Assembly: GCA_023374045.1 (NCBI GenBank)
Contig: JAIOTZ010000145.1
Span: forward strand, 17,809 to 81,808
From: Limonium bicolor
Taxonomy: Eukaryota; Streptophyta; Magnoliopsida; Caryophyllales; Plumbaginaceae
Direction: 5' to 3'
DNA length: 64,000 nt
How positions within the stretch are numbered: the first letter of the stretch is position 1; the number at the start of each line of letters is the position of its first letter. This document shows positions 23,538 to 62,558 of this stretch, piece by piece. The position numbers were made by a program, and so were the translations under genes. The notes under the pieces are model-generated. The model saw only the letters and a program-made list of their open reading frames with translations, ran no database searches and was not told where the DNA came from.

Positions 23538-26500
23538 TGTAACACCCCTACCGTTAATCCTATGCTTACCGTCCAATCATCCCATTAATACTATCAGTTC
23601 GCAGCGGAAGACTACTACTACTACGGAGGGTGGTACAACGCCGCTAACCGCCCATACGGCTAGCTAGGCTTACATTACTTACAGTCACGATCTGATGACA
23701 TAGTATACCGAGCTACTACATTACTTACCAATACAAAAGAACATATACTTACATTGATGGATTACCGAGTGCCAAGTATATTCAATTACATCTTTCCCAA
23801 GTTTACCAAAAATTAATGAGTTCCTACAAGCTACTCATCTATGCCCAATTCCAATACTTTCACTATCCAAAAGGGTGTACCCCATGGTACACCGGCTAAA
23901 AAAAACCTACAGCCGTGTACTACTTAGTACACCATTCAAAATTCATTCATTACTGCCCAAAAGAAATCAAACTAAAACACTTCGTCATCTTCACCCTTCT
24001 CGTGTACCTGCATTCATATTAAAAACATCACCCCAAGGGGCTCAGCAAAAGCTGCGCATGAACTTCGCATATACCGCGTGCTAACAAGGGCACGCCGACT
24101 AATTAAGGTTAGATAGGCATGTTCATTAATTTCATACATGCATGCTTTACATACAACATACATTCATTCACAATACCATTCACAATCCATACAACAATAC
24201 AATCACATACACATTACTTACCTTTCCAAGGGTTAGCCAAATTGTGCATCCAGGTTAATCGGAATGCTTATTACTCTTTTACTCATTACACCTTGCTTGC
24301 TCTTGCTTTACTTACTTACTCATTCTTACTTACTTACTCTTACTCATGTTAAGTCGGTATGACCTCCGGCCCGGGGACTACACCGTCCCACCACCGGGAT
24401 TTACTTGACTCACCAATCCGGGATGCTACCCATTTAAGGGGTGTGGGCCGCGGACCAGTTTAAGAGTCAGGACTTGGATCCAACCTCTTGTGTCTCCGCA
24501 TCCTCACGTGTGGCCGATACTATATCGGACTTCTACTCATTCCAATTTAATTACCAATTTAAGTTAGATTGGTTTGCTTGTTAGGAATCAGTTAGAAGTC
24601 CAATCACAATCGCATTCGGTCACAATACAATATATCATACATACATACACACACTCATATTCATCCATACATTTCATGAATTATACAAAATATGAATTAA
24701 AGATAATATACAACAATATACAGCACTACATATTCACAAGTAAGCATGATAACTCCGATTCATGCATTTATCTTATTTGGTGATCAATTAGCACACAACA
24801 CACAAATCAGAGTAACCAAGGTAGCATACGGGGCATGAGAAATTCATACCATTCACCGTTGTACTTGTATCCGACGTTCCTTCGGTGTTCACAATCCAAG
24901 TCCTAGCATATACATACAATTTGGTGGTTAATTACCCTTACTTAACCTTACTAATTACTTTACTAACATTGCCTGGTTTATACTTACTATTTCATTGTTT
25001 TTCAAATACTTATACTTAGGTTATCTACTTACAATTATTTTCTAAGCTTGTTTATGGCCTTAATGACCCTTAAACATCATTAATTATGTCTTAATCATCT
25101 TATAATATCATTACCCACCATTACCCATCCTTACCTAAGTTTTAAAATACATTCTGGATAGATTTTGTGTTGGTCCGGGTTGTTGTCCGGGTTTACAAAC
25201 CCGGACCAACACGCTGGGACAGTCCTCGGGTAAGAAAAATGCATGGTCCGGGTTTACATCCTAGTGTACAAACCCGGACCACCTGTTTGAAGTTGCTACG
25301 GGTGAGTTTTTCGCATGGTCCGGGTTTGTGTACTACTTTGCAAACCCGGACCACTTGTTTTGGTATGTTGCGGGTATGTTTTTGGGGTGGTCCGGGTTAG
25401 TGTCTTGGTTTGTAAACCCGAACCACTCCTTTGTAAAACTTTCTGTCGAGTTTTCATGCTAGTCCGGGTTTGTGTGCTGGCACTAGTGGAAAACCCGGAC
25501 TAGCTACATTATTGCAATTTATGTAAGTTTTTGAACTTGTTTCAATTTCAAACTTCTACCAATCTCTTCCCTAGTATTTCTACATATAATCTAACATGTT
25601 TTAACTTTGTTTAAGCATTTCAAACTAGCCTAAACCAACACTATAAAAATCTGTTACATTAACCCATTACTGTAAGTTTTCCTCCTCTGTTAATATTTTT
25701 CCTTCTCCAAGAAATGCTACAGACCTTCCCATTCTTCTTCCCACTAGCTCAATGACTCTTACACTAGCCTAACTTAGTTAAACAACTCCCAGTATACCAT
25801 TTACAACTCCACTCAACTACATCACCTTTTCCTGTTACAAAACAAAGTGAAAAACCTTATTCTTTCCTTCTCTGCAACTCTCTTCTGTTTCTTTCTTTTC
25901 TCACATCAACCAAGTCTCTAATTTCTAACCAAATTTTGACAGAGGTTCCCTACATTTCTAAGTGTTCTCACCACATAATTTTTTGCACACTCAATATATT
26001 CACAACCTGTTCAACATATACATTATTCTCACATATATTTCTAATACCTCCTGCACACTTAGCATTTACACTTAGCATATTATTTTCTTGTTTTCAAAAG
26101 CTTCAAACCACAAACATAATTTACACCAATATACTCAATCCCTTCCTACTGCTACGGTGGTTTTTAAATCATTGCTAAAGCAATATACTTATACCTACAC
26201 AAGCATTAAAATTGTACAGAGGCTTCTCATTACCTTTGGTTTTCTTGATTCTTTTCCTTTCTCTCCTTCTCCTTTCTTGCTCCTCTTTCCTTCTTTGTTT
26301 TATTGATTTATTTAAGCCAAGCTACACCATGTAACAAGGCACACACATACACACCAAAAATAGTAAATTTTCTATCTCACGTGTTAACCCTAGATTATGA
26401 GAAACCACTTAAAACACTTGGTAGGTCTTACCTTGAGTTTCTAATGGAGTTTTTGAGTAGAAAATGGCAAGGCTTCAACGCTCAAGATGGAACACCAAAC

Positions 26501-27365
26501 CGGCTGACAATGGAATAGTGGTGTTACGTGAGTTTTGTATTTTTGCAAGGAAAATGGAAAAGAGTGAAGCTTTGGGTCTACTTCTTACCTTAGGACATGG
26601 AGAAAAATGTAGATCTTGAAATGGTGCTCCTCAAGCTCTAAAACGATTATACCCTCAAAAATAAAGTCGGTGGTTTTAGATTTTTGAAGGGTGGAGAAAG
26701 TTCTCCTTGACGATACGAATTCAACGGTATGGTTTTCGTAGCATTTGGTGGTGGTTTGAGGTTTCAAAAATGGAGAAGAAGACAGCTCTGTGGGTGGCAA
26801 CTTCAAATCGCCATGGCTGGACCAGAGAGGAAGAAGAGAGGTGCAGTACGTGGGGGTTGTGTGTGAAAGAGGAGAGAGAGTGCTAAAAGTGAGGTTTGCT
26901 TTTTATTTGTTTTGTTTGTTAGCACATAAGGATGGAATTAAGAGAGGGGTGTGAGAGAGGCTTATAAATCGGCCCATACTGCACACACACACACACACTT
27001 ACATTTTTATTCTCAAAGTGGACACACTAACTTATTTTAATTACACTCTCACCCCACAACTTCCTGTTTTTGACAGTTTTTACTATTTCCTCGTTTTATT
27101 GATTTTATTGGTCCTAGACCTTCATTAATGTTTATTAGTGACTATTTAGTTGACCAAAATTGTTACGAGTCTATTTGACCCTCTTAAAGTCACGTTTTCC
27201 CGGTTACCTCGAAAAACGCGCTTTAATATTCGTTTGTGTTTTTAATCCGTTTTAAGGATCCGTTTCCTTCGGGATTTGCTCCCTAATATTTATTTATACT
27301 TAATTAAGCTTCTAAATTATTTATTAGCCTAAATAATCACTATTTTTAATTACGGGGTATTTTCA
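23538..27365 (-). mobile_element. A-minus 5' LTR, 3828 bp
   Basis: The LTR is TGAAAATACCCC... to ...GGGGTGTTACA on the minus strand and is followed by the PBS. It aligns at its start with the plus-strand LTR at 58567, so both are family A. It contains the hairpin array (25170-25504), a CT-rich stretch and CA repeats (about 26980-27000). Short frames in it are not convincing genes. Confidence 0.92.
25170..25504. repeat. Hairpin array in the A-minus LTR (word TGGTCCGGGTTT)
   Basis: Five units at about 70-80-bp spacing each consist of (T)GGTCCGGGTTT, a variable 6-17-nt loop, and AAACCCGGACCA. Between hairpins the text is loosely repeated (CGGGTATG, CGGGTGAG). Confidence 0.88.
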
Positions 27366-29353: not shown

Positions 29354-29779
29354 CTTGTGTCCGGAAGTCTGACGTTCGGACACAAGCCGAGGAGAAATAA
29401 ACTGCGAAAGTCCACTTGTCCGAACTTGTGTTCGGACATTGGTGTTCGGACACAAGTCGAGAGTTGAAAAATTGAAAAAACAAAAGCGTCTGAACTTGTG
29501 TCTGGACATTGATGTTCGGACACAAGTCGAGAGTTAAAACCCAAAGAGTCCGAACATGTGTCCGAACATGTAAGTTCGGACACAAGTTCTGAAAAATTCC
29601 TTACGTGGTCCGAACTTGCAAGTTCGGACATAAGTCGAGACTTGCAAGTTGGATTCGTCCTCGCATGTTGTCCGAACATTGATGTTCGGACAGATGTTCG
29701 GACACACTCAATACTGCGAAATTGATTTAAACTTTTGGGGCCTGTCCGAACATCGATGTCCGGACGGACGTTTGGACAG
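29354..29779. repeat. Hairpin array in LTR C (word TGTCCGAAC/GTTCGGACA)
   Basis: Six to seven units at about 65-bp spacing combine GTCCGAAC or GTGTCCG with TGTTCGGACACAAGTCGAG. The array lies 120-550 bp from the LTR 3' end, unlike the more internal arrays of families A and B. Confidence 0.85.
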
Positions 29780-30415
29780 GTCCTAAATTACAAATTTCAG
29801 TACGAATTCAGAGTTAGAAAATCACCAAAACACTTACAAAATCAATGTCAATATGTAGAGAAACGCTTAAGTAAATAAAGTTAGCAGTAGGTACCTCTTG
29901 GATATGCAGAAGCAATATTTAAAACCTTATAAGAACATCTCAGTCCGATCTATAAAATACCAAAGAATGTTGTTGTAAACATCATAAACAAGTATGACTT
30001 CAAATTTGCAGCGGAAATAAATCATCCAGGGTATTACCACCACACCCAAACCCCTGGGTGCTCAGGCTAATGAACCAATAAAATCAACGAAAATAATTGT
30101 TAAACTCATAATTCGATTTATGCGGAAGCTCCAAATAACTATAGTAATGTAATCATAAAAACCAACATATTGAATCTCAAATACTGTAACTTAGATATTG
30201 TCTCAAAACAACTCATGTTCTCCTATTCTATGTGATAGCGCAATCCCGGTCCCCAATTTAGTCATCAATACCTGCGATCAGAAAACAATAGACAAAAAAC
30301 AAAAGGGATCGCACAAATCAGAAAAACTGAGTAAATCCTACCTTAATATGTAAAATACATTTTGAAGTTCATTTTATCATTTGTCAAACAGACGAGAGGG
30401 ATCACTAGTAGAAAA

Positions 30416-30530
30416 AAGGCCTATTTCGGCGGTTCCAATGGGCCTATTTCGGCGGTTCACCTATTTCGGCAGTTCCAATGGGCCTATTTCGGCGGTTGTG
30501 AACCGCCAAAATGAGCACCGCCGAAATAGG
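30416..30530. repeat. CACTA left subterminal repeats
   Basis: Several direct copies of CCTATTTCGGCGGTTC and one inverted partner, AACCGCCGAAATAGG. In the En/Spm system such subterminal repeats are transposase-binding sites. Confidence 0.85.
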
Positions 30531-30534
30531 TGTA

Positions 30535-30726
30535 CCTATCTCGGCGGTTCTTAGAGAACAACCGCCGAGATAGACCCATGGGATTGACCGATGCTGAGAT
30601 TGACCATGAGTCTATCTCGGCGGTTGTTCTCTAAGAACCGCCGAGATAGACTCATGGTCAATCTCAGCATCGGTCAATCCCATGGGTCTATCTCGGCGGT
30701 TGTTCTCTAAGAACCACCGAGATAGG
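30535..30726. repeat. Near-perfect 91-bp-arm palindrome in the CACTA left end
   Basis: The arms 30535-30625 and 30636-30726 are reverse complements with about one mismatch around a 10-nt loop. Each arm contains smaller hairpins CTATCTCGGCGGTT...AACCGCCGAGATAG, a variant (TCTCGG) of the TTTCGG word elsewhere in the element. Confidence 0.88.
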
Positions 30727-31059
30727 GGTATTTTTTTTTGTTTTTTTCCATCCCAGCTTATATATATATATATATATATTCACCGCATTTGGTTCAATGA
30801 GACCTGTAATAAAGCTTCATCCATACAGGGAGCTCCAGCACACATTTAAAAAGTTATAAAAGCTCCCAATTAATACCAACGACGCACCACAATTTGAGAG
30901 TTAACAAAACCAATGCAATTACACTTAATTACACACTTTCATTACAAATAAAAAACAACATTACAATTCAAATCTACCATTACACCATCCACAAGTGTAC
31001 AGAGTTACAATTACATACTCGAAAAAGTTCACAAAACATCTTCATGATCATCAATTCAT

Positions 31060-34000
31060 TAAACTTGTGCAGACGAACTCCGACCATTCCTCAAGCATCT
31101 CAACAATTTGAGCATCATCATACTGACCACCTTTGAACACTTCTTCGTAAGCCTTGAAAAAAAATGAACATTAATCTAAAACGTACAAGTCTAACAACAT
31201 GTAAAGAGCATAACTGAAACTTTCAAAGAATGTTACCTTGTCTAACGAGTGCTCTGGTAAAAGGTTCGCCGCTCCTACTATGTCACTCATGAATCTCATG
31301 ACATAGTATCCACATTCTGAACCCCCAGGCTGCACCGGACACTATACAAACGCACATATTGACAGTTATAAACAAGTTTAAACATTATCACACAAATTTA
31401 TCAATTAATAGAGTACCTTGACAGTGTTCCAAGGGATGTTACTCTTCATTGTTTTATTCTGGAGAGATAATGCAGCTCTCGTGGAACTATATACATCAGC
31501 AATATATAGTTTTAAGCATCAGTATCAAGTTATGAAACAGTTAATGTTAAGTAATAATAATTGTTGTTTACGATAACAAACTAATTACCCCAGTATTGCG
31601 GTGGAGATCTTCGGTCTCTTGGCACCCGTACCAAGTGAGTCAAATTGCAAGATTCGTGGGTGCTTCAACATCACCAGCACAAGCAATGACCAATGTCGAC
31701 TGTCCACAAATTACACAATGTGTTGAAATCATTAAGCAACTAACACAAACTATATGTTTTAGATAATACTAAGAGAAATAGTCAAATATCATACCCTGAA
31801 TGATATGGCAGCATAATAAATGACTTGTTAGAACATTCAAAGAGGGCATTCGTCATATATTGCATAAGGCCTTCCATATCACTTGTCATCTGGACTTCAC
31901 TGCACATAGCAGGACACAGGAATCCAAATCTGTGATCTTCATAGACATTGATCGCCTTATTATGCACCCACCTATGAGGCAATATCATTAGTCATTAACT
32001 TTTTATTCAAACATCTAATTCATCACCAATCAATGAATTCAAAATATAAAAGGTAGAAGTCACTCACATGGCGGCCGACTTGATAATCGACACATTCAAC
32101 CAATCCCTCCTGAAGCACTCCTCGAAGTCGGACATATACATCCCAAATCGATGTATATCTTCTCCTTGAACTATATAGTGAAATATCCGCTCGGGATCTT
32201 CCACAGTGAGGGAATCACAATCAGGTGGTAGCAGCAACAACGATGAATGCAGAATCTGCATATTAGTCGACAAGCCGGCCAATATTCTTTCTCCACCAAA
32301 GCAGGTCTAAGCAAAATTTGTGGATGCCTTTGATTGCACAGGTGCGGCAATTCTTTTTCCTTTGCCCTTATCAGTCTTCGGTCGGCTCATATCCTATGAT
32401 ATTAGTCTAATTAAGTATATGGATGCAAGGTGGTATACCAATAGTTTTATAGCAACGGTTAAGAGTAAATACCTGCCCAGGGAGTCTGACCAATCGTACA
32501 GGCCACTGCACTGTCGCAGTTTGTGCGGAACGCAAGGTAGGTCTTTGTGGGATCGGCACCGGTAAACCGACGTCAGCATGCTCTGCAACAAATTCGTCCA
32601 GAAGCACTCGTGCATGGTAATGTCGGAGTGGTTCACCGTGCACAATATCACTTGGAAGAAGGGAAAAGTTTTCCCCATGCCACCATGACCTCTTCTACTC
32701 CAATTTGTAAAAACAGATGGCACTCAGTGGGTGCCTGAGTGTTATGTGGAACTTGTTTAGATAAAAATTGAGAATTCCTCTATGATGATATTAGTGATCA
32801 AGTGAAAAATCTTAATCGTCATGTACTCAATTGAAATGTTAGTCTAACCTTTAGAGATGCATAGGGAAACGGATCAGCCGAGTGGACACTACTTCTCACT
32901 ACCGGTGCACTCTGCTGCTGAATGGGTGACTCAACTGGTGGTCGAGAAACCTCTTGGCTGTCATGCTGCTGTGGCTGAAGCCTTGACATAGCCTGAGCGA
33001 TCCTCTCGTCGACGCTCTGAGTAATCCTCTGCTCCATCTCAGCCAACGCTCTCAGGTGCTCCTCGTAGCTAATCGTCTTTCCCTGGCTGATTCTGGACCC
33101 GGGTACGCCAAATGCCTGGCGGATACCAACGTGCCCACCCAAAACCCAAAACCCAATGGCACGACCTGGATGATCCTTCTTACCAAAGAGCGCGTGTAAG
33201 AGGATCATCATTCCTCTGTGAGGTCCAGGTGCCCTGGGTGAGCTGAGAGCTTAATTCACCCTAATACAAACACAAATACAGTTATTAGTTTAACATAAGT
33301 TCATATACAAATGAAATGAACAGTTTGACTAAAAATGAAATGATATCACTTACCATTTGAGCAATAACTGCTCTCGTGGCTTCATCGTATTGAGGATTTT
33401 CGGGAGTAGAGTTCTTCGGAATGTGGCTTAACTCCCACACTTTCATTCTTCTGCCACTGGCATCCAATGAGCCATCCGTGGGCAGATATCCCTTTTGCTC
33501 CCATTCTGGTACCCTTTGAGCAATACTTTTTCCACCTAAGTGGTGAGGGTACAGATTCTTCTTAGCATTTGCTTGTTGTTGCGCACGGAGAGCCTGCATA
33601 AATTAATGGGATCATGTTTAGTGAAATTGAACACAAAAAAACATAAGAAATTAAGATTAATTTATGTATGTATGACAATAAAGTGCACCTGGAACTCCGG
33701 TGTGTGACGCTCTCAACAAATTGTACCCATTGCTCTTTGTATGCCCTCGTAAACCTCCCATGGTGGTCTCTCACCGTCTCCACCATGATCTGGAGCATCT
33801 GGATCTTCTGGAGCAGGCATCTTGTAGATGTACTTGTCAGCCAACTTATTCTTGTGGTCCCGGAACTGTTTCGACATCGCTGATAGCACATCCTTTTTAA
33901 GTGCGGGATCCACGGAGAAACGAGACTACGTACATGATCATTCAGTTAGTAAAGTAAACATAAATGTTCTATTATTTCACAAAAGATCATAGTAATAATG

Positions 34001-34380
34001 TAGAGATTTACCTGAAGACGCTGAAACATAGTATCCTTCAATGATTGAGGCACTTGCTTCCAGTTGTGGTTTATGTTGCAATATGACTTCACCAAATGGC
34101 TACCGTAAGCGGTGAAGTCATTCTTCCAATTTCCATGGGGTTGGTTGAACTGATTGAAGTCCACCGGTTTTGTAGGAGGGCCCTTGTTAGCCTTCAGCCC
34201 ACGTGTTGCACCTCTCTTCTTTTGCTTCTTCGCCTCTGGTGGGACAACTGACTCCTCTTCGGTCTGCTGTGAAGGGCCAGCCTCAGTCTCGTGTACTGCT
34301 AACTGGTCCTTCTTCTTCTTTCCTCTTGTTGTGACCCGCTTACTTGGTCTATTCAGCTGTGGCTCAGGTTCTCCAGTCAA
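31060..34380 (-). pseudogene. CACTA accessory gene: TNP1-like (Ptta/En/Spm) plus Ulp1-type cysteine protease
   Basis: The minus-strand coding pieces have intron-like gaps and frame changes. The N-terminal part (34380-33946) is basic, with KRVTTRGKKKKDQ. The TNP1/Transposase_24 part follows with DPALKKDVLSAMSKQFRDHK (about 33915), QALRAQQQANAKKNLYPHHL and LGGKSIAQRVPEW (about 33600-33530), and a helical EHLRALAEMEQRI segment (about 33060). Downstream lies a C48-like peptidase domain: WVHNKAINVYEDHRFGFL (about 31980), HWSLLVLVMLK (catalytic His), FDSLG (Asp) and CPVQPGGSECGYYVMRFM (Gln and Cys, about 31340-31280). All catalytic positions remain, but a frame change around 33720-33770 suggests damage. 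Ulp1-like domains are known passengers of plant CACTA elements. Confidence 0.8.
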
Positions 34381-34557
34381 GAGAAGCGTCCAATGGGGTC
34401 ATCCATAGGGTGATCATCCACTGCAAAAAAAATAATAAAGCATTTTCATCAGATAAAGTCATAACATAAATACTATGATGCATAACAATAACAGTTAAGA
34501 TGACATTACAGTCTACATTCTACTAACAACATTACCTGACACGTACAAAAACATAAA

Positions 34558-35745
34558 TCATTTCATATTTTCTACCCAAACACCCTCATCATGGTCTGAT
34601 CGTGCGTAGAGCAAATCGTTTTCGGTATCATCAATCGAATCCGGTAATCCAGTAGGAAACAAGGATGTTTCCTCTACAGTCCCATTTTCATCGTTATCCT
34701 CATTTTCATTTTCGATTACAACCGGCCTTCTTCCTGGAAGAACAACAGACCATCTGCAGTCTTTCGGATCCTCAACATACCACACTTGTTCGCAATCCTT
34801 TCCCAGAACAAATTGATCATCATTATAACCGTGTAACCGTGAAAGATCAACCAAGGTAAGCCCTCCATCATTTTGGTACCCGCGTCGGTTGTCCACCCAC
34901 TTGCACCGGAACAACAGAAAGGAATCAATGTCATAGTCTAGTTCCCAGATGTCCTCGATGACACCATAATACCAACTAAGTTACTAACTGGTTGAGATCG
35001 GTTACCGCTGTGGTACTCAGTGGCAGCAGCTTCAATTTTTACCCCACTATTCTGGTTTATCGATTTGGCATCTTGGCGTGCAGTGTAGTATGTATACCCA
35101 CTAATATCATACCCCTCAAATGATGTAATATTAGTTTCAGGTCCGATTGCCAAACATCTGATCTCTTCGCTTACAGCTTCTGGATCTGATGATGCTAATG
35201 TCAACACATGATCTTTGAACCATTGGATAAAAACTCGGTTTTGTTCCTTTGTCAGCCAAATGTGGCCTTTCAAAGGATTTTGATGCCTTAACTCAACCAT
35301 ATGGGTTTCCAAATAGGTTCAACAACCTCAAGATGTTGTAAGACAAACAAATGTGCTTGATGAATAAGTAGACGCGAAACTTGCACGATCTTTCTACCAA
35401 TAACACCTTTACCCTTAAACCTGCCATAGTGTCGTGGTTTTGGGATACCAATAGACTCTGCCTCACTCAATAATCGGTCACAAATTCCGTGACTTCCTCA
35501 GTCACTGTTGCTTCAACAATGCTCCCCTCTGGTCGATACCTATTCTTCATTCTACTTTTCAGAATACCCATGTACCGTTCAAAAGGGTACATGTACCGTA
35601 AGTATACCGGACCACAGAACTGTATCTCTCGAACGATGTGCACAATTAGATGCACCATTATATCAAAGAAAGATGGTGGGAAATACATCTCAAGTTGACA
35701 TAATGTGACAACCACAAACATTCCAACAATGGCAGCAACCAACAA
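34558..35745 (-). pseudogene. CACTA TNP2-associated remnant (DUF4218, DUF4216)
   Basis: The upstream part (35745-35290) reads LEMYFPPSFFDIMVHLIVHI, CGPVYLRYMYPFERYMGILK and NRYRPEGSI, then ESIGIPKPRHYGRFKGKGVI, typical of DUF4218. The downstream part has GYDISGYTYYTARQD and FRCKWVDNRRGY, NDQFVLGK-like and QVWYVEDP, typical of DUF4216. Both domains normally follow the transposase core in TNP2 proteins. Frame changes near 35300 and 34960 break the reading frame, and the core domain upstream is missing. Confidence 0.85.
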
Positions 35746-38225
35746 TTAAAATAAATCAATTCTTTACTAGCTAACTGAAAACCAATTGCAAATTCAGATC
35801 ATCAAATCAACATTTTCAATTCTCCACTGTATAAGTTCAAAGTGGTTTAGAGATTAAAACAAAATCGAGAGTTAAAATACGTACTTGTTTTTTAAGGATT
35901 TATGGACAGGGGAGACTGGTGCCTGGGAGGTAGGCTTCTGTGCGGGAGATGCAGCAATACCACTTATGATATGTCTCTGCAAGGGAGCAATAAAAAATAA
36001 ATTACAAAAGAAATGCATCAACAATATGGAATGAAGCTAAATTATGTACTAGCACTTATATTTAAATACATAATTGCATTTATTAAACAAAAATAAGGTT
36101 TAGTTACTTACTTGTGCACAGAGGAGGAAAGTGCAACAGTAATGGAAGAAGGCGGGAAACAAGAGAGGTGATTCACGGACTTGAATGTAGTGAGACTGAT
36201 AAAAAAAATTAGATATGTTAGACATATACACATACATCAAAAATATTAATTACGAAGAGATTTTGAAAAAAAAAAATCGGCATGACTTTTGCATAATTTT
36301 ACCTATCCCATGCTTATTATTAAGCATTCACCAATCATTCATCAACACAAATTTCCATCACAAATCAAACTAATACCAACTTTCTTTTCCATCAAACCAA
36401 ATTTTAATAATTTGTGGAAATCAAATACAAAGTAAAAAAAAGACACAACCATGCCTATTATTAAGCATTCAACAATTATTCAACAACACAAATTTCTATC
36501 ATAAACCAAACTAATATATACCAAATTTATTCATCAAACGAAATTCCAATAATTTTGTGGAAATCAAATACAAAGTACAAAAGAGAAAAATGATAAGTTA
36601 GATTATATTACCGGTTCAAAAATGAATTGTTCTCCGCTCCGTTTTCAATCTACCATCAAATGGTAAAGAAGCTTCTTAAGTATTTATCTGTAGAGACAGA
36701 AATACGTATAGACACAAGAGAAACTCAGTAGTTGTGTTTGTTCCTATATGCAGTTAGGTTGCAAATTTACATGAGTGAAGAGAATGAAAGAATGAAGAGT
36801 TAAATTAAAAAAATTTTACCGGTTCCTAAATGAATTGTTTTCAGCCCCTCTTCTCAATCGGGCGTGCGAGACGCGTGTAGCAATACCAATATCTATAGAG
36901 GCAACGCAGACGCAAAATAAATATGAATTGAGGGCGCAAAACTATATTGCTTACAATCAGGGGTGGAGCTAGGAATTTTACATTAGGGGGGCTGGGATAT
37001 ATTTTGAATATTTTATCAGGATAGACAATGTGTGAGTGTAAGTAACTATTAATTGACTAAATGGTTGTTGTACAGTTAGTTGTATAGTAACATAGTACAT
37101 AAATCAACAAATAATTTTCACACTCAATCTAAACGACTCATAAAGATTGAACAACATTCACATCAATTAGAATAATTTTATATTAAACTTAACGACTATA
37201 CAATACTCATATATATATATGCACTACCGAATGTTTAATAGTATTTTTACCAATGAATGAAGTTGTTCATAACAACTCATAAATGATAAGATCAAACTAT
37301 AACTTACATAACAACCTAAATGTATTTTTCATGTTTAACATGTTATCCATAATTTTCAATATACCTCTTATGCATCACACTCTTGTATTAATGATAATAT
37401 AATATCATAATCAAATATGTAAATTATAAACATTATCGTTAGCTCATTCAAACAAGCACAATAAGAATTTTTTTTAGTATAACTCTAATACAATCTACAG
37501 AGAGTGGGGAACTTAGTGTCAAAGATGATAACTCATCAACTCGACTACATTGTTTATGAAGACAAGGAGAAACTCTTAATTGATTAACTTATATTACTTG
37601 TTCGAACAAGTAACTTACATTTGTGATTAGTACAAATTTTGTGCAATTAGATAAAAATATACATGCCATTTTCATTGCATAAGGAAAAATAATTTAAAGA
37701 TCCCCACCGCACTTTTACTATTAAATAAACAATACAATATTTAAAATCCTTTTCTTGAAAACAAATTTAGTTATGAAATTTTTCTGATTTATGTGTTGTT
37801 TATTTATGCAAATAACTAGCAGAGATCTCACTCACCAATGTATATTTACAATGTATATTTACTTATGAAATGTGAATTAACAAGTAATTTTAAGTGGACA
37901 AATAAGCTAACCTAACTTACTTAAACAAATATGCTCAACATGTTCACCCCTATATAAAGCATAATAAATCTAGCCCAAATAAGCTAACCTAACTATACTT
38001 AAAAGAAGGGCCAAAAACAGCAAAAAATTCACTCGGACATTTCGCAAACACCTTGTGTGCATACATAAATTTATTAGTTTAACAACCAAATCTTGAAAAA
38101 GATTTCCACACACAATAAATATCAGCATCCACAATCACAATGTGACAACAATCTATCAATTTTAACAACACATTAACAATTAATTAAACAAAACCGAAAC
38201 TTACAAGTTAGGGTTTATACTCACC
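35746..38225. other. CACTA interior without recognisable transposase
   Basis: This is AT-rich non-coding DNA where TNP2 would be expected. A GGGGTGGAGCTAGGA-type motif at about 36961 resembles the end of another small transposon, but I found no second end. Confidence 0.5.
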
Positions 38226-38400
38226 TGGCGCGTCTGTTTGCTGGGCGGGAGGGGCGGCGACGACCACCGACGCGACAACCACCGGCGGCGCGATGTCCGC
38301 GAAGGCGGGAGGAAAGGAGGAGGGCGGGCGACGGCAGTGAGGTGTGGTAGCGTCGGGGGTTTACCAAATCGCCGCGAGAACAGAGAGAAGAGGGGTTATT
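38226..38400 (-). promoter_or_regulatory. GC-rich block next to the CACTA promoter end
   Basis: A sharply GC- and CpG-rich segment (GGCGGCGACGACC, CCGGCGGCGCGATG) lies between AT-rich interior and the right subterminal repeats. En/Spm elements have a comparable GC-rich first exon beside the promoter, so this is inferred to be the transcription-start region. Confidence 0.5.
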
Positions 38401-38453
38401 ATGTTTAATGAAACCGTAATTGCGTCAAGGGCGGTGGGGGCTAATTAAACAAC

Positions 38454-38800
38454 CTATTTCGGCGGTTCTTGTTAGAAACCGCCGAAATAGGCCCTATTTA
38501 ATAATAAAAAAAATAAAAGAGACCTATTTCGGCGGTTCCTAACAAAGAACCGCCGAAATAGATGATTAATTAAAAAAAAAAAGAAAAATAGAAACACCTA
38601 TTTCGGCGGTTTCGTGTAAGGAACCGCCGAAATAGGTCTCTTTTATTTTTTTATTATTTAAATAGGGCCTATTTCAGAGGTTCATATCTAGGAACTGCTG
38701 AAATAGACCCCCTTCTTTACATACCGCATATATCTCGGCCCCCTATTTGCGGCGGTTTTTATCTACAACCGCCGAAATAGGGGCGCCGAAATAGACGTTT
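38454..38800. repeat. CACTA right subterminal hairpins
   Basis: At least four hairpins CTATTTCGGCGGTT, 8-14 nt, AACCGCCGAAATAG lie within 350 bp of the terminus, separated by A- and T-rich spacers. This is the same word as at the left end. Confidence 0.88.
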
Positions 38801-42137: not shown

Positions 42138-42145
42138 CTCGCTAC

Positions 42146-52605: not shown

Positions 52606-52608
52606 GAA

Positions 52609-53036: not shown

Positions 53037-53118
53037 ATGGATGCCCAGTTAGCTGTTGCGGTGCAGAAGTGTAAGGTCTTAGAGTCAATCATTGAGGAAT
53101 TGAGGAGTAAGGTTAATC

Positions 53119-56100
53119 TGAAATACCCCAAACCTTGGTATGTTGTGTAAATGTTAAACTATGGTATTTAAAGGCTAAAAAGTGCCTTAGAAACATAAAT
53201 GAACCATTTAAACCATGGTAAAACACAATAAAACACTAAGACACGGTTTGAGCAAAAACATGCTCTAAGCTTGGAGTGAACTTGGCTAGGACCCAAAGAG
53301 CCTACCAAGATTTGATAATATAAAATTATGATTTTATAAGGCTAATTAAGTCCTTAGGAAACCTTGGTAGACAATGAAACCAAACAAAACACAAATAAAT
53401 ACCTTAAGGTCAATATGGGCTAAAATGTGCTCTAAGCTTGGGATAAATGTGTATAAGACCTAATGGTCATACCTGCCTTATTTATATGTTAATGAACATA
53501 TTAAATCAATTACCAAGAAACCAACCAAGCTTGAAAACAAGTTAAAACACAAAATGTGCTTTTAGGAGTCTTAAAGCACATTTCTGAAAAATTGTCTTGT
53601 AAATGAGTTTTGAGTGGCTAAATGTCCATCATTACTCTTTAATCTACATGTGTACTACTTAGTATCACATTAGGAAGTCTAGATCAATGGGAAATCAAAA
53701 ATTTCACAAATATGTGCCTTAATATGTGAATAGTGCTCAAATAGTGCTAGTTTTGACTTAAGTCAACTTTGATTAGTTAAATGGTCAACAAAGACCATAA
53801 ATATCTTTTAGAATGAAGGGGGCACGGTTTTTAGAGTGTGAGTCACCATACCAAGCCAGCCAACTAAAGAAAAGAAAAATAAATAAAGTAAAGTTACTAT
53901 TTACCTTTATAAGTCAAAATATCTTAACAAAGCATACCTCTCACCTCCTTTCTTCATTTCCTCTTGTTCCCACCGTGTTCTTCCTCCATTCTCCCAACCA
54001 ATCTCGTTCTTGCTACAGCACATCTCTTCTCCAACTTCAATTGCTCACCAAATGTTCAATATTGCTCCAAATAAAAAACTAAGCACATATTTGTCTTAGT
54101 TGAGTCAAGGCCTTTCATCCTCTCTTTTCAAAATTTCAAAAGCTCATGTTTGATGCCATGAAGAAACTCCATTGAAGGGGGAAAGTTCTGTTTGAAGAGC
54201 TCTTTTGCTTCTTCTCTCATTCTAGGTAAGGAAAATCAAAGAAAATCCAGGTTTCCTTCATTTTTGTGTATAGCCGAAAATTCACCCCTTAATGGTGCCT
54301 TGTCTTGCTCTCTTCATAGCTTAATTCAAACTTCAAAGGACTAGGAGGAGTCCTATCTTGCTACTTAACCAAGCTCTCTTCCGAATTCCAAAGGTAATCA
54401 TCAAATTTTGGTGTTTTAAGACACATATGTAAACCTAGGGTTTAACTATGAGTTTGGGTATTAAACTTAATGCTCATTACCCTTATATGTGTAATGGTTA
54501 GAAGATTGACAAGTGATAAAAGCTCCTTGCCGATTTTCAATCAAGAAAGAACAAGAGAAAACAAGTGAGAAAACTTGGAAAACAAAGAGGTAAATGACCC
54601 TCATAATGTATTTTTATGTACTAGGAAATTGAGCTATACTTGCTTAATAATTAACCTAAAGAGCCAATGGGAAATGAGCTAGAAAACTATCCACAAGGTG
54701 GACTAAAAAGACATGGGAGCATTGTTGTGTGTATTCGCAGGTTGAAGGCATTTAAATGTGGAGATTCAGTGTTTAAGTTTAATGCAATTTAAGGGCCTAA
54801 GAGCCATGTTATTTAAGGGCCTAAGTGCCAAGCAATTTAAGTTTATGCACTATATTGTGATGTAGTGTAGTTTAAAGGTTTAGTTGTGTGTAAAGAACAT
54901 CTCTTGTGAAGGTGAATGTGTTTGATGGTTAAAGGATGAAAAACCATATGTTTGTGTATAAGAGTGTGTATTAAGAGATTGAATGTTCTTGATTGTCTAA
55001 AAGTGAAAAACAATGTGTTTTGGTGTAAGGTGATACAAGAGAAGCTATGGCGAAATTTAGTTGATAAACAAAAGAGTTTATGTTTTGTAATGAGATTTTA
55101 TGACCTAGAAGGTACTAGGAATTTTTAAGTGTTAAGATGGTGAAAGAAAGTGAATTAAGGTGTTCTTAGGTGTTAAGATGCCTTAGGCATAGTCTTGGAG
55201 ATTTAGGGAACTAATGGATGATTTCTTGATACACCAAGGTGATGGTGGAGGTGTCGTAAAGTCTTGTGCAAAGTTTGGTGAACAATGGAAGTGTAACGCC
55301 TTGTGAAGGTTTATTTATGAACTTGTGGGAAAGACTTGAGGAGTGTGTATAAAGGGGATGAGTGTAGGGCAAATGATGTTAAAAGGGTGGTTATAAGGTA
55401 GTGAGGGAGTACTTTGGTTAGGTGAAGTTTTAGGCAAGAATACAAGTTACAAGTGTAAGAAAAAAAATGTTCTAAGTGTTAAGGACTTAGTAAAAGTTGA
55501 GTAAAAGTTTAAGGAATTTTTGGGATGTTTTGAAAGGGTTTAAGTGTGCCCAAAAGATGTTAAAACATGTGGGAGAACATGTGTAAAGCATAGGAAAAAA
55601 TTGGGATGAATTTGGAGTTCATAAAGAGGAGAAAAGCACATTAGAAAATTGGTTCTGCAGTGGACCGCCCCTACGGACCGCCCCTGTGGGGAGGTCCAGT
55701 GCAGAGAAGTGAAAAAAAAAAGGGAACGTGTAGCATCTGTTGTGGACCGCCCCTGGGACCGCCCCAGAGGGGCGGTCCAGACCAGAAATGAAGAAAAAAA
55801 TTTGTTTAAGGCTCCTAATGATGGGGGATTGAATGGTAATGGTTTTAGATGATGTTTAGGCCTTGTTTGGTGACATGTAAAGGCCTTAAGAGGTGTAAAC
55901 AAGTATGAGGTGTAATGAGAAGTGATTAACTTATATGATTAAGTTTAAACTACAATGACTTAGTGGTCCAACATTAGGGAGTGATGATGGTTAGAAAGAT
56001 AAGCATTAGACTTTAAACAAGCATGTTACTCCAATGTTAATGAAAGTAATTGTAATGTTATCAGTTGTTCGAGAATTGCTCGAGGAACATAAGTGGACAT

Positions 56101-57756
56101 GATAAAGTGGACTCCGGTGACAGGTATGGTTTTCTTGCAACCTGTGTCCTACCGGATTACACCGGCTTGTATGCCAATGTTTTTCTGAGTGTTTGCCACC
56201 TTGTAAGATTAAAACATGTAATGAGTTTATAGTAATTCATTTATGTGGCGAATTTGGCCTCCGATACCATTTAACCTCAAATATGTGTTAAACCTTAGCT
56301 AACCAAAACTAAACATGAGTTATCGGTATTCGGAGTTGACGGCCCAAACCTTGGGAACGTGCTAACCACGGCTATGTGTGAGTTAGTTGGACATTGTTGT
56401 TATATGCAAGTGTGTGAACCTCCCTTGTGTGCTTAACTCGGTTATGATACCGTATGGTGTGTGGATGTGGTAGGCTCCATAATGGATCTCTAACTACTTA
56501 TTTATAAGTGTATATGTACTAATGGGGGGTGAGGAGTCCGGTTGTTCCGGCCACGCGTGTGATGGACGGGAGTCGATGTCATATCCGGTTCGGCTCTCTT
56601 GGTGTATGTATAGGTTGTATTCCAATTTGGTTTCTACCTTCCCTTAGCTTATCCAAAGCTAGTTACTGACTCACGTCGGGCCACAGGGGCATACGTATGT
56701 TATTTCGGTGTGCTTGGGATTACTATATCCGACACACCTTGGGTATAAGTTAACCGTTCTATATAACCGGACGGTAACGAGGTTGGTAACGAGCTTAACA
56801 TGGGATTGGTAATAATCTCTAGGCTCACTATGAATACTAACTATGGTGGAAGGTTCCTTGTGAGAACCGATTTATGGTGTTATTATGGAGTTGTGCTATG
56901 CAAATTCCCTTGCTATGCTACGATAAGTATACGTTAGGTGTTTAGAATGACGGTGATGTGTCATGTGTACGTCGAAACAAGAAAGTTTTGTTATGTTTTG
57001 TTATGTGGAATGAGTTATGTTGTAGGATATGGAATGTGTGGATCATGGAAATGAATCCCAGTTGGTGACAAGAGGCGTTTAAGGATAACCCGATTAATGG
57101 GTACATGTCGTTCGTTAAGGAAGTAGCTCCGCTTTAGAGGAGAGCCACTCTAGGGTTTAAGGAATCATTGGATGGTTGGTTAAGTGTGGATGTGTTGGTT
57201 ATAGGTTGAGCCCATTGAGGCGAAATGTTATGTGTTGTATGTCTATGGCTTGTATGCATGATTTAAATATAATCAACTGCATGCTAAGACGACAATTAGT
57301 TGTGCGTGGCCCGGTAGCATGTGGGCTGCGGGATTACCATACCAGCAAAGGTGCTGAGCCCCTTGGGGGCCACCCTTTTCTACCTTTTCTATTTCAGGTA
57401 CAAGGAGCTGGAAGCCGTTCGAGAGTAGGACGGGGTAGCTGACTGTACATGGGTAGCCATTTAAATTGAGTATGTACTGTAGGCGTAGTAAGACCGAAAT
57501 TGTTATCGGCATTAGTTTGTAAATACTCGGTACAGTGGGAGTGTTTGTGTATAATAATTGTTGGAAATGGGATAAGGATTGTATTGTGTAGTGCTCGGGA
57601 ATTTAGCCCATCAGACCGGTACAATGTACATGTATTAGCCTTGTTAGCCACGTGGGTGGTTAACGGCGTGTAACACCAACAAATTAAGTTATTTAATGAG
57701 GTGTGTATTCCGCTGCAGATTGTTGTTATGTGTTTGTTGTTGGATGGGGTGTTACA
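53119..57756 (+). mobile_element. Solo LTR, Tekay-like family B (copy 2), 4638 bp
   Basis: The ends are TGAAATACCCC and GGGGTGTTACA, with a perfect 5-bp duplication TAATC at 53114-53118 and 57757-57761. It is clearly related along its length to the solo LTR at 1706, with the same landmarks (AAGGGCCTAAGAGCCATG near 54785, GGTATGGTTTTCTTGCA near 56125, AGGCACCTTT-region blocks near 57340). It has no PBS or internal region. It lies inside the Ogre-like gag. Confidence 0.93.
55662..55779. repeat. Hairpin array in solo LTR B2 (word GGACCGCCCC/GGGGCGGTCC)
   Basis: Two units about 80 bp apart each have GGACCGCCCC twice, then GGGG(C/A)GGTCC. The position corresponds to the GACCGACCC array of copy B1. 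Confidence 0.82.
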
Positions 57757-58566
57757 TAATCTCCAAGAAGCAAATCAACGAACTCTAGAGAAACTTGCGG
57801 ATGAAATTTTTAACCATGGTTGCATCAAAATTGACTCCGTTAGAGCCTAGGGTTCTCAAGCACATGTGGAGAAAGAAGTTCCAGATAACCAAATAGCTAC
57901 AGAGTTTAAAAGGGCCTTAAAGAGGATCGAGTGCATGGAGAAAGCCAACAAACCGGCTGGCTTCGAATACTTCTTCATGGCATCATATCCCGAGGTTGGC
58001 CTTCCCCCAAAGCTGGAACTGCCCACACTTGCTTTATACAAAGGTTCCTCGGACCCACAAATTCATTTGGCTATGTTCGACTAGGTGTCTATCCTCAAGC
58101 TCAACGACATGCAGAAGGCCAAAGTGTTTTCTTGCTATATAGACGAGATTCCTCAACGTTGGTATCTCACCCAGAGGATGAATACCAAGACCCACGAGGA
58201 GGTTTACAAAGCTTTCCTACACCATTTTGAGTATGCTAAGAACCTTGAAGTCACCAGGGCTGATCTTGCAGGCACTCGACAGAAAGACAGTGAGTCCATG
58301 TCTGACTTCATCAAGCGTAGGAGGAGGAAGGATGCTGCTATGCCTACCAAAATGGACGAGCAAGAGCAAATCCACATGATAGTGGAAAACACGCGGGAAT
58401 AGTACAATGATGAGTTGAAGTGCATGTACTTCCCAAATCTCGAGATGCTGATAGGACAAGTTGGAATCCTAGAAGAGAGGATCCATAAGGGAGGATTTGG
58501 ATTCAAAGCAGCACCTTATTCCCGGGGTAGCTCCAGGCAGCACGAAGTAAACATTGTTCGGAAATC

Positions 58567-61500
58567 TGAAATACCCTGAAATTAAAAATAGTGATTAATT
58601 AGGCTAATGAAGATTTTAGAAGCTTAATTATGCCTAAATAAACATGAGGGAACAATTCCCGAAGAAAGCGGATCCATAAAACGGATTAAAAACACAAACG
58701 AACCTTAAAGCGTGTTTTTCGAGGAAACCGGGAAAACACAACTTTAATTAAGCGGGTTAAATAGACCCGTAATAGTTTTAGTCAATCAAATGTCTTTAAT
58801 TAGACATTAGTGAAGGTCTAGAACCATTAAAATTAATTAAACGAGAAAACATTCTTGAAAACGGGTTCTGGTGAGGGAATAGTGCAAAAACAAAACATGT
58901 GGGGTACTAGTTGTAATAAAACCAAAATAGCTTCCCCCATTTTTAAATAAGAATCAGAAAATTGCGTGTGTGGGCTGTGTGGGACGGCTGACTAGTCTTC
59001 CCACCTTCCTTAATTCATTTTATGCACAAAAGGACAAACTCATAAAGTAAAAGCAAATTTAAGCCACTCTTTCTCCTACACTCATGCCCTCTCACGATTT
59101 TTCTCCCCCCATTCAGACTCCTATTCCTCCTTCAGCCTCTCTAATGGTGATTTGCAAGCCCCTCTCACAAGTCTCTCTCTCTCTCTCTCTCTCTCCATTA
59201 TTGAAGACTCAAACCTTGTCCAAATCCCATAAAAACTACACCATTGAACTCCCCTCACTTAGGAGAGTATTTCGCTCTTTTCAAAATAAGAAAAACTCAC
59301 ACTTCATCTCCATGGGTGTGGCTCTTCTTGAAGCTTGAAGGTGACCATTGGAAGCCAAATCATCTTCTAGTTGTTTTAAGGTAAGAAAGGAATCTTAAAA
59401 CTCATTTTTTTCTAGCTCTTCTTCTTCAACCAAGAATTTTCCAGATTTTTGAACCCTTGTTATCCCTCTTGCTCTAGCTGATTTTAGCCCCTTCAAGTAG
59501 TGCTGGAGCTTGTTGATTTAATGCTCAAAAACTCACCTAGAAGTTCCAAGGTGATACTCTTTTAAAGCTTTAAACCCTTCTTGCATTGTAGAGTTGATAT
59601 TAGTTTTTTAGGAGTTACATTAATGCTCATTAGTATTCCTTGGTATGGGCTGTAGCATTAGAGTTTTGAACTCCCCCATAACCGGTTGTGAAAGGAAGAG
59701 CAAGGAAGGGAAGAAGAAGAAGGAAAGGAAAGAAAGCTAGCAATTCAAGGTAAATGAGCTAAACCTTGAGCTAGTTTTGTATGTAGAAGAAAACAGAATT
59801 TTAATGCCTAAGTATTGTATAACAATAATAAAGGTAAACAAATGATGGAGAGGTATTCTAGTATGAATTGTGTTGATGTTTAAGGGCCTTAGAGCCAAGT
59901 ACTTAAATTATTGTACAATGGGACTATTGTTGAACTTGTGCAGGAAAAAATTAATTAAGAGATTGAACTATGCTAATGTTGTAGTGTGTGGAATAATGTG
60001 GTTATTGGGATAGATTGGTCGAGCTGAATATGTGGTGAGAATGATAGAATTTTAGGGGAACCTCTATCAAAATTTGGGTAGAAATTAGAAGACTTGGGGG
60101 TTTAGGAAGATAAAATAACCTAGGATATAACTAGGGTGTCTTGGTGTTTAATGTGAGTAGTTAACCACCTTGAAAACACATTTGAGAGAGTGTTAAGTAG
60201 TGGGAAGAACTAAGGACGAAGATAACGCAATGTGGATTCTAGTAATGGCATTAGTTGAGAGAACATTGAATGGTGAGAGTGAGAGTTAAAATCTGTAGCA
60301 TAGAAGAAACTAGAAAACTAGAGCAAGTGCTGAAATGAAAGTGAGAGAATTGTGTTAGTAGATGGTTTAGGAAGGTTTGAAGTGCTAAAATTGGTGTTAA
60401 ATATGTTAGAAATGCTTTGGAAAAGATTAGGGAAGATATGGGTAAAGAATGGAGCTGAAAACAAAGTTAAAATAAGTATACTGGCTCCGACCGACCTTAG
60501 GACCGACCCTGGGAAGGTCGGTCAAGCCAGAATTTTGCAAACACGGAAGTCTACTGACTTCGACCGACCTTGATCTTGGCAAGGTCGGTCGAGTCGTAAT
60601 TTGTAAACCCAGAAGTCTACTGACTTCGACCGACCTTGGGATCGGTCTTGGCAAGGTCGGTCGAGTCATAATTTTCGAACCCAGGAACTTACTGACTTTG
60701 ACCGACCTTCAGACCCACCCTGCAAGGTCGGTCGGGTCAAAATTTGTAGAATAGAAGTCTTCTGTCTTCGACCGACCTTGGGGAAGGTCGGTCGAAGTTG
60801 ACTGTTCCAGAACCGTAACCTACTGACGACTGACCTTGGGGCCGACCCTGGGTAAGGTCGGTCGAGTCAAACAAAAAATAAAATAAAAATAATACAGTAA
60901 TCATATATGTGTATATATATGGGGCTTTAGTAGTATACCATTGATGGAGTAATGATGGTGAGACAATATACACATAAGTAAGAAAAAAATCTTAAGAAAT
61001 AATGAGAAGGAAATGATTTTCATGATTAAGTATGAGTTGTAAGAACTAGTAATGATAAATTCAAAATACTAATGAAAGAACGGGATAGGTTGATAATATA
61101 TAATTAACCGTACAATCCTGTGTATGTTATAGGAGTTGAATAGTTGAACCTCGAAGGAAAATTGGAGTCCAAGTACGACGGTGAACAGTATGATTTTCTC
61201 ATGCCCCGTATGCTACCGTGGTTACCTGATTTGTGTGATTGTTTGTTATGTGTGATCACCTAAATAAGATAAAATGCACGAATCGGGTTTATTGCACCTT
61301 CTTGTGCTAGTAGTGTATTGTTCCTTGCTGGATGGTAATTGAACTCATAGTTTGTATAATTCATGAAATGTATGATTATGAATGAAGTGTTTGATTGCCT
61401 TGGTGTGAAGTGTACTAACCAAGTAGTATGGAAAGAATGATTCTCACTAACTCGTAACTAAGTAACCCTTCTAACCTTGAGTAAATTGGTAGATTGGAGT

Positions 61501-62558
61501 AATGTGAGAAGTCCGATATAGTTTCGGCCACGCGTGAGAATGAGGAAATACGAGGTTGTTTCAGTTCTGGCCTATTCTTTCTTGCGGTCCAAACCCCTTA
61601 AATGGGTAGCAACCCTAGGAAGTAAGCCACCCTAAAGCCCGGTGGTGGGATATCGTAGTCCTTGCCCGGAGGTCATACCGACTTGACTTGAGTAATGAAG
61701 TAGGAAGAGTAATTGGCCAAGTAAAGATCATGACTGGTGTAAGTCAAGTATCTCGAGTAAAAGAGTAAAGTACACCCGATTAACCCGGGTGAGTATGTAA
61801 CTAACAAAGTAATGTGTATGAACTTGAGAAGTGTATCCCAGTGCCTTGGTAAGTATGTATGGTTGACCTGTGATTGTCTTCCTTTGTATGTATCAGATTG
61901 CATGTATGTATGCACTATGGTATGAATGTATTATTGTTCATCATGGCATGTACACATGAATAAATAAAATGAACTCCATGTATGCGACCAAGTAGTCGGT
62001 GTACCCCCGTTAGCACGCGGGCTATGCGAATTTATATGCAGCCTTTGCTGAGCCCCTTTGGGCACTGTTTTTATTTCTTCCAGGTACCCGTGAAGATTGA
62101 TGGTCGAGTTAAGACCAAGATGAATGCTTTTTGGTGTAGTTAGTAGATTGGAAACGGTGTACCGAGTTGTACACGGCTTATAGCCTTTTTGAGTAGCCGG
62201 TATACCATGTGGTACACCCTTTTGGATATTGGAATTGTGAACTTGGTAGGAATGAGTAGTGGTATAAACTCATAGCCTTTGATTAGGCTTGTAAGAATGG
62301 GATGTAATTTGATATGAATTTGTATACTCGGTAATCCAAGGATGTAAGTAAATGTTGGGAATGTAATGGAAGTATTTGTTATTGCTCGGTATATTCTATT
62401 CATCAGACCGTTACAGTAAGTAGCATGAGCCTTGTTAGTCATTGGGTAGCTAACAACATTGTATCACCCGCCGGGAGTATGTGGGAATTCCGCTGCGAGT
62501 AGAGTTGTAATGGAGACATTTAGAGGATAATGACAGGATTAGCGGTTGAGGTGTTACA
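58567..62558 (+). mobile_element. Tekay A-plus 5' LTR, 3992 bp
   Basis: The ends are TGAAATACCCTG and GAGGTGTTACA, followed by the iMet PBS at 62564. Its first 250 bp align with the start of the A-minus LTR. It contains a (CT)n run near 59165 and an array of hairpins at 60487-60867. The left 5 bp AAATC (58562-58566) is the candidate target duplication, whose partner is outside the window. Confidence 0.9.
60487..60867. repeat. Hairpin array in the A-plus LTR (word CGACCGACCTT/AAGGTCGGTCG)
   Basis: Six units at about 65-70-bp spacing each have CGACCGACCTT, a variable loop, and AAGGTCGGTCGAGTC. The spacers are themselves repeated (AGAAGTCTACTGACTT). Confidence 0.9.

What the first reader, a model, noticed from the sequence alone, without database searches (positions are those of the whole stretch)
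23538..62558. Same LTR slot, different hairpin word: rapidly switching inverted-repeat arrays in Tekay-like LTRs
Four related LTRs (B1, B2, A-minus, A-plus) each have an array of short GC-rich hairpins about 215-340 bp upstream of a conserved landmark (GTATGRTTTTCTYRTGC type). Period (65-80 bp) and layout (arm, variable loop, inverse arm) are kept, but the word differs: GACCGACCC, GGACCGCCCC, GGTCCGGGTTT and CGACCGACCTT. A-minus and A-plus align at their LTR starts yet do not share the word. Conserved architecture with replaced sequence suggests selection on structure, or concerted turnover, for example binding sites that evade silencing or hairpin RNAs.
Basis: partly seen in the sequence, partly recalled or inferred. 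Interest (0 to 1): 0.88.

Follow-up and report, generated by a model that had tools for sequence, protein, structure and literature searches.

The report
Swappable hairpin cassettes in plant LTRs
In a very large family of retrotransposons in one plant genome, the long end repeats carry, at one fixed place, an array of inverted repeats that is predicted to fold into hairpins and is built from one of several short 'words'; copies that are 96-98% identical on both sides can carry different words, most likely because the segment is exchanged as a block by recombination, which would let the element change a regulatory or silencing signal in one step.

Summary
In detail: the four LTRs carry GC-rich inverted-repeat arrays ending 215-346 bp before a conserved landmark. 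In the window's own 2.92-Gb genome the two landmark types have 13,298 and 49,690 exact copies. Across 64 LTRs (60 fetched, four here) hairpins are 76 times above shuffles, 165 of 203 in one slot. 57 of 64 carry one of seven word classes, usually one per array; six classes hold CCG/CGG; four occur on both LTR backbones. Word change is largely block exchange: LTRs 96-98% identical on both sides differ in a cassette of about 0.8-1.1 kb whose nearest relative is another lineage. Between elements with the same word, arms vary about two- to fourfold less than loops and spacers. Pairing is kept across words; unit-by-unit compensation was clear in one of three tests. One word shows 12,126 G.U against 96 A.C pairs: a hint of RNA pairing, but lineage history could also give it. 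Closest known: palindromic CGG-CCG motifs of Sirevirus (Ty1/copia) LTRs and mosaic HERVH LTRs. I read this as an exchangeable, likely cis-regulatory cassette in a Ty3 family: a new variant of a known kind, function inferred.

The parts
23538..27365 (-). A-minus 5' LTR (TGAAAATACCCC...GGGGTGTTACA), followed by a primer-binding-like site TGGTATCAGAGC and gag
   Evidence: gag by Pfam; the PBS reading (initiator Met tRNA) is recalled
25167..25504 (-). A-minus hairpin array, word GGTCCGGGTTT (class W6)
   Evidence: RNA fold z -10.8
24833..24849 (-). A-minus landmark, 1 mismatch
58567..62558 (+). A-plus 5' LTR
60486..60869 (+). A-plus hairpin array, word CGACCGACCTT (class W1-3)
   Evidence: RNA fold z -9.2 on 60474-60871
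61188..61204 (+). A-plus landmark, exact
1706..5557 (+). B1 solo LTR with TSD TATTG (1701-1705 and 5558-5562)
3952..4214 (+). B1 hairpin array, word GACCGACCCA (class W4)
4429..4445 (+). B1 landmark (B type)
3199..3255 (+). conserved block with 24-bp repeats near the 5' border of the variable cassette in B1
   Evidence: conservation peak at -1215
53119..57756 (+). B2 solo LTR with TSD TAATC (53114-53118 and 57757-57761)
55659..55780 (+). B2 hairpin array, word GGACCGCCCC (class W8), two units
56124..56140 (+). B2 landmark (B type)

Best explanation
The array is the variable core of a cassette of about 1 kb inside the LTR of a huge, recently active Ty3-type retrotransposon family; cassettes with different words differ as whole blocks between otherwise near-identical LTRs, most likely through recombination between element lineages, and the array likely works as a cluster of inverted CCG/CGG protein-binding sites that would control transcription. 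Shown: fixed slot, mostly one word class per array, the same words on two LTR backbones, block-wise mosaic LTRs, CpG enrichment, and arms that vary less than loops and spacers between elements with the same word. Inferred: the exchange happens by template switching between co-packaged RNAs (gene conversion is the alternative), with conserved blocks on either side of the variable stretch as homology. Inferred: the dyad sites bind a host factor, as was suggested for the CGG-CCG motifs of Sireviruses, and a change of word changes the regulatory input or the host's recognition.
For: Slot: 165 of 203 hairpins at -800..-200. Words: 57 of 64 LTRs in seven classes, four of them on both backbones. Non-circular complementarity: 647 of 1,308 repeated 8-mers have their reverse complement in the same slot, 178 on average in other slots. 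Mosaics: L049 and L058 agree at 96.4% upstream and 98.2% downstream but not at about -1100..-280, where L049 is nearest to L059 with the same word; L015 and L048 likewise. Nearest relative shares the word in only 5 of 19 (upstream) and 6 of 19 (downstream) B-type LTRs. Conserved blocks at -1215 and at the landmark flank the most variable part. CpG denser in the slot in 54 of 57 LTRs. Arms vary less than loops and spacers. Recent activity: no substitutions in the slot between the two LTRs in 3 of 8 elements (gaps not counted). Sirevirus parallel: PMC2829016.
Against: No expression, binding or small-RNA data. Promoter position is unclear: the TATA-like box after the array is present within 150 bp in 40 of 57 LTRs and decayed in several copies, and another TATA-like site lies about 2.1 kb before the landmark in some, in which case the array would be transcribed. 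L017 has the slot without an array. Word and backbone are not fully independent in A-type LTRs: nearest relatives share the word in 19 of 29 (upstream) and 22 of 29 (downstream). The arm constraint is conditioned on same word and its pairs share sequences.
Confidence: 0.55

Rival explanations
1. The arrays act as hairpins in the sense RNA (packaging, dimerisation, stability or processing), and selection keeps pairing while sequence drifts through G.U intermediates.
For: At one W1-3 pair, oriented counts are A-U 19,642, G-C 11,600, G.U 12,126 and A.C 96, as sense-RNA pairing predicts. In 100 listed units arms match their own partner in 73 against 59.8 in within-array shuffles, 0 of 5,000 as high. 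Folds with z -9.2 and -10.8.
Against: Three of four combinations is also what one lineage history without recurrent change gives. Other core positions do not repeat the asymmetry: all distinct units 21 sense G.U against 15 A.C type, and W5 shows 2 against 7. Unit-level matching was not above chance. Orientation by the middle copy is imperfect: 6 of 38 arrays are mixed.
Confidence: 0.2
2. Word switching lets elements escape recognition by small RNAs or other sequence-specific silencing.
For: In maize Sireviruses the palindrome-rich LTR region is a hotspot of small-RNA matching and of variability (passages of PMC5311732 and PMC10760457, which cite Bousios 2016; that paper is not held). Elements with a switched cassette are young: L014 and L015, the two LTRs of one element, show 0 substitutions over 577 aligned slot bases.
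Against: No small-RNA or methylation data here. A handful of words recurs on very many copies (113,913 units of W1-3 alone), so an escape would be short-lived.
Confidence: 0.12
3. The arrays have no function: palindromes arise and are copied by replication slippage and hairpin-templated repair or reverse transcription, which makes both arms agree, and recombination spreads them.
For: Within an array arms agree as well with other units as with their own partner in two of three tests (weakly, 70 not at all), so homogenisation can explain the pairing. Arrays of similar look occur in other element types in the window.
Against: A fixed slot on divergent backbones, recurrent CCG/CGG in six of seven word classes, and arms that vary less than the loops and spacers between them.
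Confidence: 0.13

Closest known systems
Palindromic repeated motifs (RM boxes, CGG-CCG core) of Sirevirus (Ty1/copia) LTRs, Bousios et al. 2010, PMC2829016 (section 9 read whole, other passages)
   Same: Many copies of short dyad motifs clustered in one part of the LTR, CCG/CGG core, CpG-rich, words differ between elements; stress-factor sites suggested, function untested.
   Different: There Ty1/copia and reported as absent from the other copia elements examined, upstream of a conserved TATA box, words differ between families. Here a Ty3-type element, order CCG...CGG with longer loops and often a third copy, TATA relation unclear, words switch between near-identical LTRs by block.
Palindromes of maize Sirevirus LTRs as small-RNA hotspots (Bousios et al. 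2016, not held; seen through passages of PMC5311732 and PMC10760457)
   Same: The palindrome-rich region is the variable part of the LTR and can fold.
   Different: Small-RNA targeting not tested here. PMC10760457 (passage) reports that Ty3 elements in maize generally lack an obvious peak of such structures.
Mosaic cis-regulatory evolution of HERVH LTR7, PMC8912925 (passages)
   Same: LTR blocks exchanged between subfamilies by recombination, giving new motif modules.
   Different: A human endogenous retrovirus with expression data; there the modules are ordinary factor sites, here hairpin arrays; no expression data here.
Retrosat2 of rice, LTR over 3.2 kb, PMC3485330 (passages and section 8)
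   Same: Ty3-type element with very long LTRs; its inverted LTR ends (TGTCACACCC-GGGCGTGACA) resemble the ends here.
   Different: Its reported repeats are seven CTTTTT copies in R, not hairpins. That it belongs to the Del/Tekay clade is recalled.
VANDAL elements with their anti-silencing proteins and motifs (recalled, no paper seen)
   Same: Arrays of short motifs that differ between related elements and are read by a sequence-specific protein.

Membership tests
Ty3/gypsy LTR retrotransposon | gag, then protease, RT, RNaseH, integrase in that order | tested here: met
   A-minus pieces on the minus strand: Retrotrans_gag, RVP_2, RVT_1, RNaseH, Integrase_H2C2 (rve below its cut-off)
Chromovirus, Tekay/Del lineage | chromodomain at the end of integrase | tested here: inconclusive
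   SH3_Tf2-1 67.1 bits, Chromo 21.8 bits below the cut-off of 25.1; relatives often carry both domains
Chromovirus, Tekay/Del lineage | place in an RT tree with named lineages | not tested
Sirevirus RM boxes | carried by a Ty1/copia Sirevirus | tested here: not met
   Ty3 gene order
Sirevirus RM boxes | clustered dyad motif with CGG-CCG core in the LTR | tested here: met
   six of seven word classes hold CCG/CGG; order is CCG...CGG rather than CGG-CCG
Sirevirus RM boxes | cluster forms a CpG island | tested here: met
   CpG per kb 76, 48, 50, 70 in the four arrays against 15-20 in the rest of the LTRs; higher in the slot in 54 of 57 LTRs; no island program was run
Sirevirus RM boxes | lies shortly upstream of a conserved TATA box | tested here: inconclusive
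   TATA-like hexamer within 150 bp in 40 of 57, random windows 0.29, decayed in several copies
Mosaic LTR evolution (HERVH type) | blocks with conflicting nearest relatives | tested here: met
Mosaic LTR evolution (HERVH type) | exchanged block changes promoter activity | not testable with these tools
   needs reporter or expression data

The most novel reading that the evidence does not exclude
The LTR holds a one-slot 'word' locus that works like antigenic variation: a retrotransposon family keeps a pool of interchangeable, structure-constrained hairpin words and changes its regulatory or silencing identity in one step by cassette exchange, with the words kept under selection as sense-strand RNA hairpins that tolerate G.U but not A.C.
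Probability: 0.15. Interest if true: 0.88.

Novelty: new variant of a known kind. Interest (0 to 1): 0.6.

Why it matters
Palindrome-rich LTR regions are proposed hotspots of host-transposon conflict in Ty1/copia Sireviruses. A Ty3 family with 113,913 and 35,604 hairpin units of two word classes in one genome, recent insertions and natural swaps on near-identical backbones gives matched LTRs that differ mainly in the cassette: a natural experiment for asking whether such arrays drive transcription, attract silencing, or act as RNA.

Tried and rejected
Intron model: donor-like AGGTAAG before and acceptor-like sites after the array are not kept across LTRs (10 of 21 B-type share one donor-like bin, no such bin in 38 A-type); dropped.

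G.U asymmetry as proof of RNA selection: not accepted as proof, because it rests on one pair of one word and a single history also predicts it. An apparent T.G excess in W5 is, on reading units, a one-base bulge.

Unit-level compensation in fetched LTRs: not above chance (1,165 of 5,000 shuffles as high), weak (25 of 2,000). My core-only unit finder mispairs the middle copy in some classes, so both tests are poor; avoids this but covers one word and a list of 100 places.

One search's 'within-element' list held 4 of 11 pairs that lie too far apart to be one element; replaced (8 pairs, 8.3-9.7 kb apart), where too few changes (3 of 638 arm positions, 19 of 2,772 flank positions) allow a contrast. 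The exclusion list likewise held 7 of 14 pairs that are not clearly one element, so its 3 of 7 and 6 of 20 different-word pairs are examples, not rates.

Rfam: no match in the window. Insertion of a separate hairpin transposon into each LTR: thought unlikely, since arrays lie in an alignable slot and words are shared between backbones; target duplications were not searched for. Solved structures gave only weak matches to the chromodomain piece.

Literature: nine answered searches listed no title on hairpin arrays in Tekay or chromovirus LTRs; only open-licence PMC papers are held, and I saw listings, not each paper.
Full report
Setting. The window lies in a 2.92-Gb plant assembly (G000, contig C421; plant by its protein relatives). 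It holds two Ty3-type elements with 5' LTRs (A-minus 27365-23538, A-plus 58567-62558) and two solo LTRs with 5-bp target duplications (B1 1706-5557, B2 53119-57756), read. A-minus shows gag, protease, RT, RNaseH and integrase in Ty3 order and, beyond nested insertions, an SH3_Tf2-1 domain with a sub-threshold chromodomain (21.8 bits, cut-off 25.1). 'Tekay-like' fits but the lineage was not tested.

Observation. Each LTR has an array of GC-rich inverted repeats whose last arm ends 215 (B1), 346 (B2), 323 (A-minus) and 324 bp (A-plus) before the landmark. The words are as reported. All four hold CCG/CGG, and B1 and A-plus share GACCGACC.

Family scale. The A-type landmark has 13,298 exact copies (reversed control 0), the B-type 49,690 (control 1). 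I fetched 40 of the first 41 listed A places and 20 of the first 27 listed B places, all at the start of one chromosome, and added the four window LTRs: 64 in all. This is not a random genome sample.

Slot. Hairpins with arms of at least 9, GC at least 0.55 and loop up to 30 number 203 against 2.7 in dinucleotide shuffles; 165 lie at -800..-200 of the landmark; 55 of 64 LTRs have at least one there. Of the nine without, L010 and L062 show arrays that miss these thresholds, L013, L027 and L032 show other sequence upstream and L017 has the slot without an array; L047 is classed W1-3; L018 and L033 I did not look at. A test that finds arms only as direct repeats agrees: 647 of 1,308 repeated GC-rich 8-mers have their reverse complement in the same slot, 178 on average in another LTR's slot, 11 reversed without complement; in background stretches 42 of 404.

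Words. 57 of 64 LTRs fall in seven classes: W5 GTCCGGGACTT 24, W1-3 GACCGNNCTTG 15, W4 GWCCGACCCA 5, W6 GTCCGGGTTT 5, W7 GTCCGAAC 5, W9 GACCTACC 2, W8 GACCGCCCC 1. Most arrays hold one class; a few hold one to three copies of a second. W5, W1-3, W6 and W4 occur on both A and B backbones. A unit is often a triad: arm, a second copy, inverse arm. Genome-wide there are 113,913 units of W1-3 and 35,604 of W7, reversed controls 0; the tool calls counts of repeats lower bounds. CpG per kb is higher in the slot than upstream in 54 of 57 LTRs.

How words change. LTRs that are near-identical outside can differ in word. L049 (W7) and L058 (W1-3) agree at 96.4% upstream and 98.2% downstream but not between about -1100 and -280; from about -950 to -300 the nearest relative of L049 is L059, also W7, while on both sides it is mostly L058, L055 and L056. 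L015 (W4) and L048 (W5) are 96-100% identical at -1900..-1150, unlike inside, and similar again from the landmark on. In B-type LTRs the nearest relative shares the word in 5 of 19 by the upstream block, 9 of 19 by the 5' part of the cassette and 6 of 19 by the downstream block; in A-type 19, 24 and 22 of 29. Conservation in 12 B-type LTRs is lowest in the slot (0.34-0.57; beyond +800 the alignment ends) and high at -1215 and at the landmark. I infer exchange by template switching between co-packaged RNAs or by gene conversion, with those conserved blocks as homology. Insertions are recent: of eight same-element LTR pairs, three show no substitution in the slot and seven none in the arms (gaps not counted).

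Constraint. In 61 pairs of different elements with the same word, 4.1% of arm positions differ, 17.8% in loops, 17.2% in spacers and 12.9% in the flank; in 13 disjoint pairs 4.2, 9.6, 7.6 and 5.8%; in 107 pairs regardless of word 10.3, 20.3, 21.9 and 16.4%. The first two are conditioned on same word, and pairs of the larger sets share sequences.

Pairing. Across LTRs both arms change together (4.24 of 5 tail positions match within units, 4.17 with other units of the array, 2.15 between LTRs). Unit by unit the evidence is mixed: 25 of 2,000 within-array shuffles reach the observed value,165 of 5,000, and 0 of 5,000 (73 matches of 100 against 59.8). At one W1-3 pair, counts oriented by the middle copy are A-U 19,642, G-C 11,600, G.U 12,126 and A.C 96. 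Matched by eye, ten G.U places listed lie 467-554 bp upstream of B landmarks on the matching strand, which supports the orientation; the first two A.C places sit next to G.U units of the opposite orientation, so some of the 96 may be misread G.U. Sense-RNA pairing predicts this table, but so does a single lineage history, and other core positions do not repeat it. I leave it open. As RNA the A-plus and A-minus arrays fold with z -9.2 and -10.8.

Place relative to the promoter. A TATA-like hexamer lies within 150 bp after the array in 40 of 57 LTRs (29% of random windows), often 66-68 bp after it, in a conserved block, but it is decayed in several copies. Another TATA-like site, in some LTRs with a CT-rich leader, lies about 2.1 kb before the landmark. 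I cannot say which is used.

Comparison. Sireviruses (Ty1/copia) carry clustered palindromic motifs with a CGG-CCG core, CpG-rich, upstream of a TATA box, with family-specific words (PMC2829016, section 9 read whole, other passages). Passages in PMC5311732 and PMC10760457 report palindromic LTR regions as small-RNA hotspots, and the latter that Ty3 elements in maize generally lack an obvious peak of such structures. HERVH LTRs evolve by block exchange (PMC8912925, passages). The present case joins the two: Sirevirus-like motif arrays in a Ty3 family, exchanged as cassettes between near-identical LTRs. It is not a Sirevirus by its pol. I call it a new variant of a known kind.

Noticed in passing
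window 5947-6173: Another array of inverted CCG/CGG repeats (AACCGCCC...GGGCGGTT) about 200 bp before a TATA-like CTATAAATA, inside what reads like the LTR of an unrelated element (from about 5671; my reading, Pfam found nothing in the ORF at 1-654).
   Followed up: partly
window 29354-29779, minus strand: An array of the W7 word (GTCCGAAC), 77% identical to the array of L053 and L054, in surroundings that do not match the other LTRs; the same word may be carried by a further LTR family that ends in GGGTGTTACA.
   Followed up: partly
window 30404-38815: A CACTA-like element (both ends read CACTAGTA; name recalled) with subterminal inverted repeats of AACCGCCGAAATAGG at both ends, a look-alike of the LTR arrays.
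   Followed up: partly
window 62681-62991: A foldback sequence with ends TGTAACACCCCC...GGGGGTGTTACA between the A-plus LTR and gag; its ends resemble LTR ends of this family.
   Followed up: no
window 9017-18089: Three LTR-like copies of about 1.5 kb, 97% alike, with two short internal parts: a tandem short element nested in the pol of A-minus.
   Followed up: no
L017 (C1 about 1.10 Mb); L018 also falls in no word class: An A-type LTR that keeps sequence on both sides of the slot but has no array: a natural array-less control.
   Followed up: no
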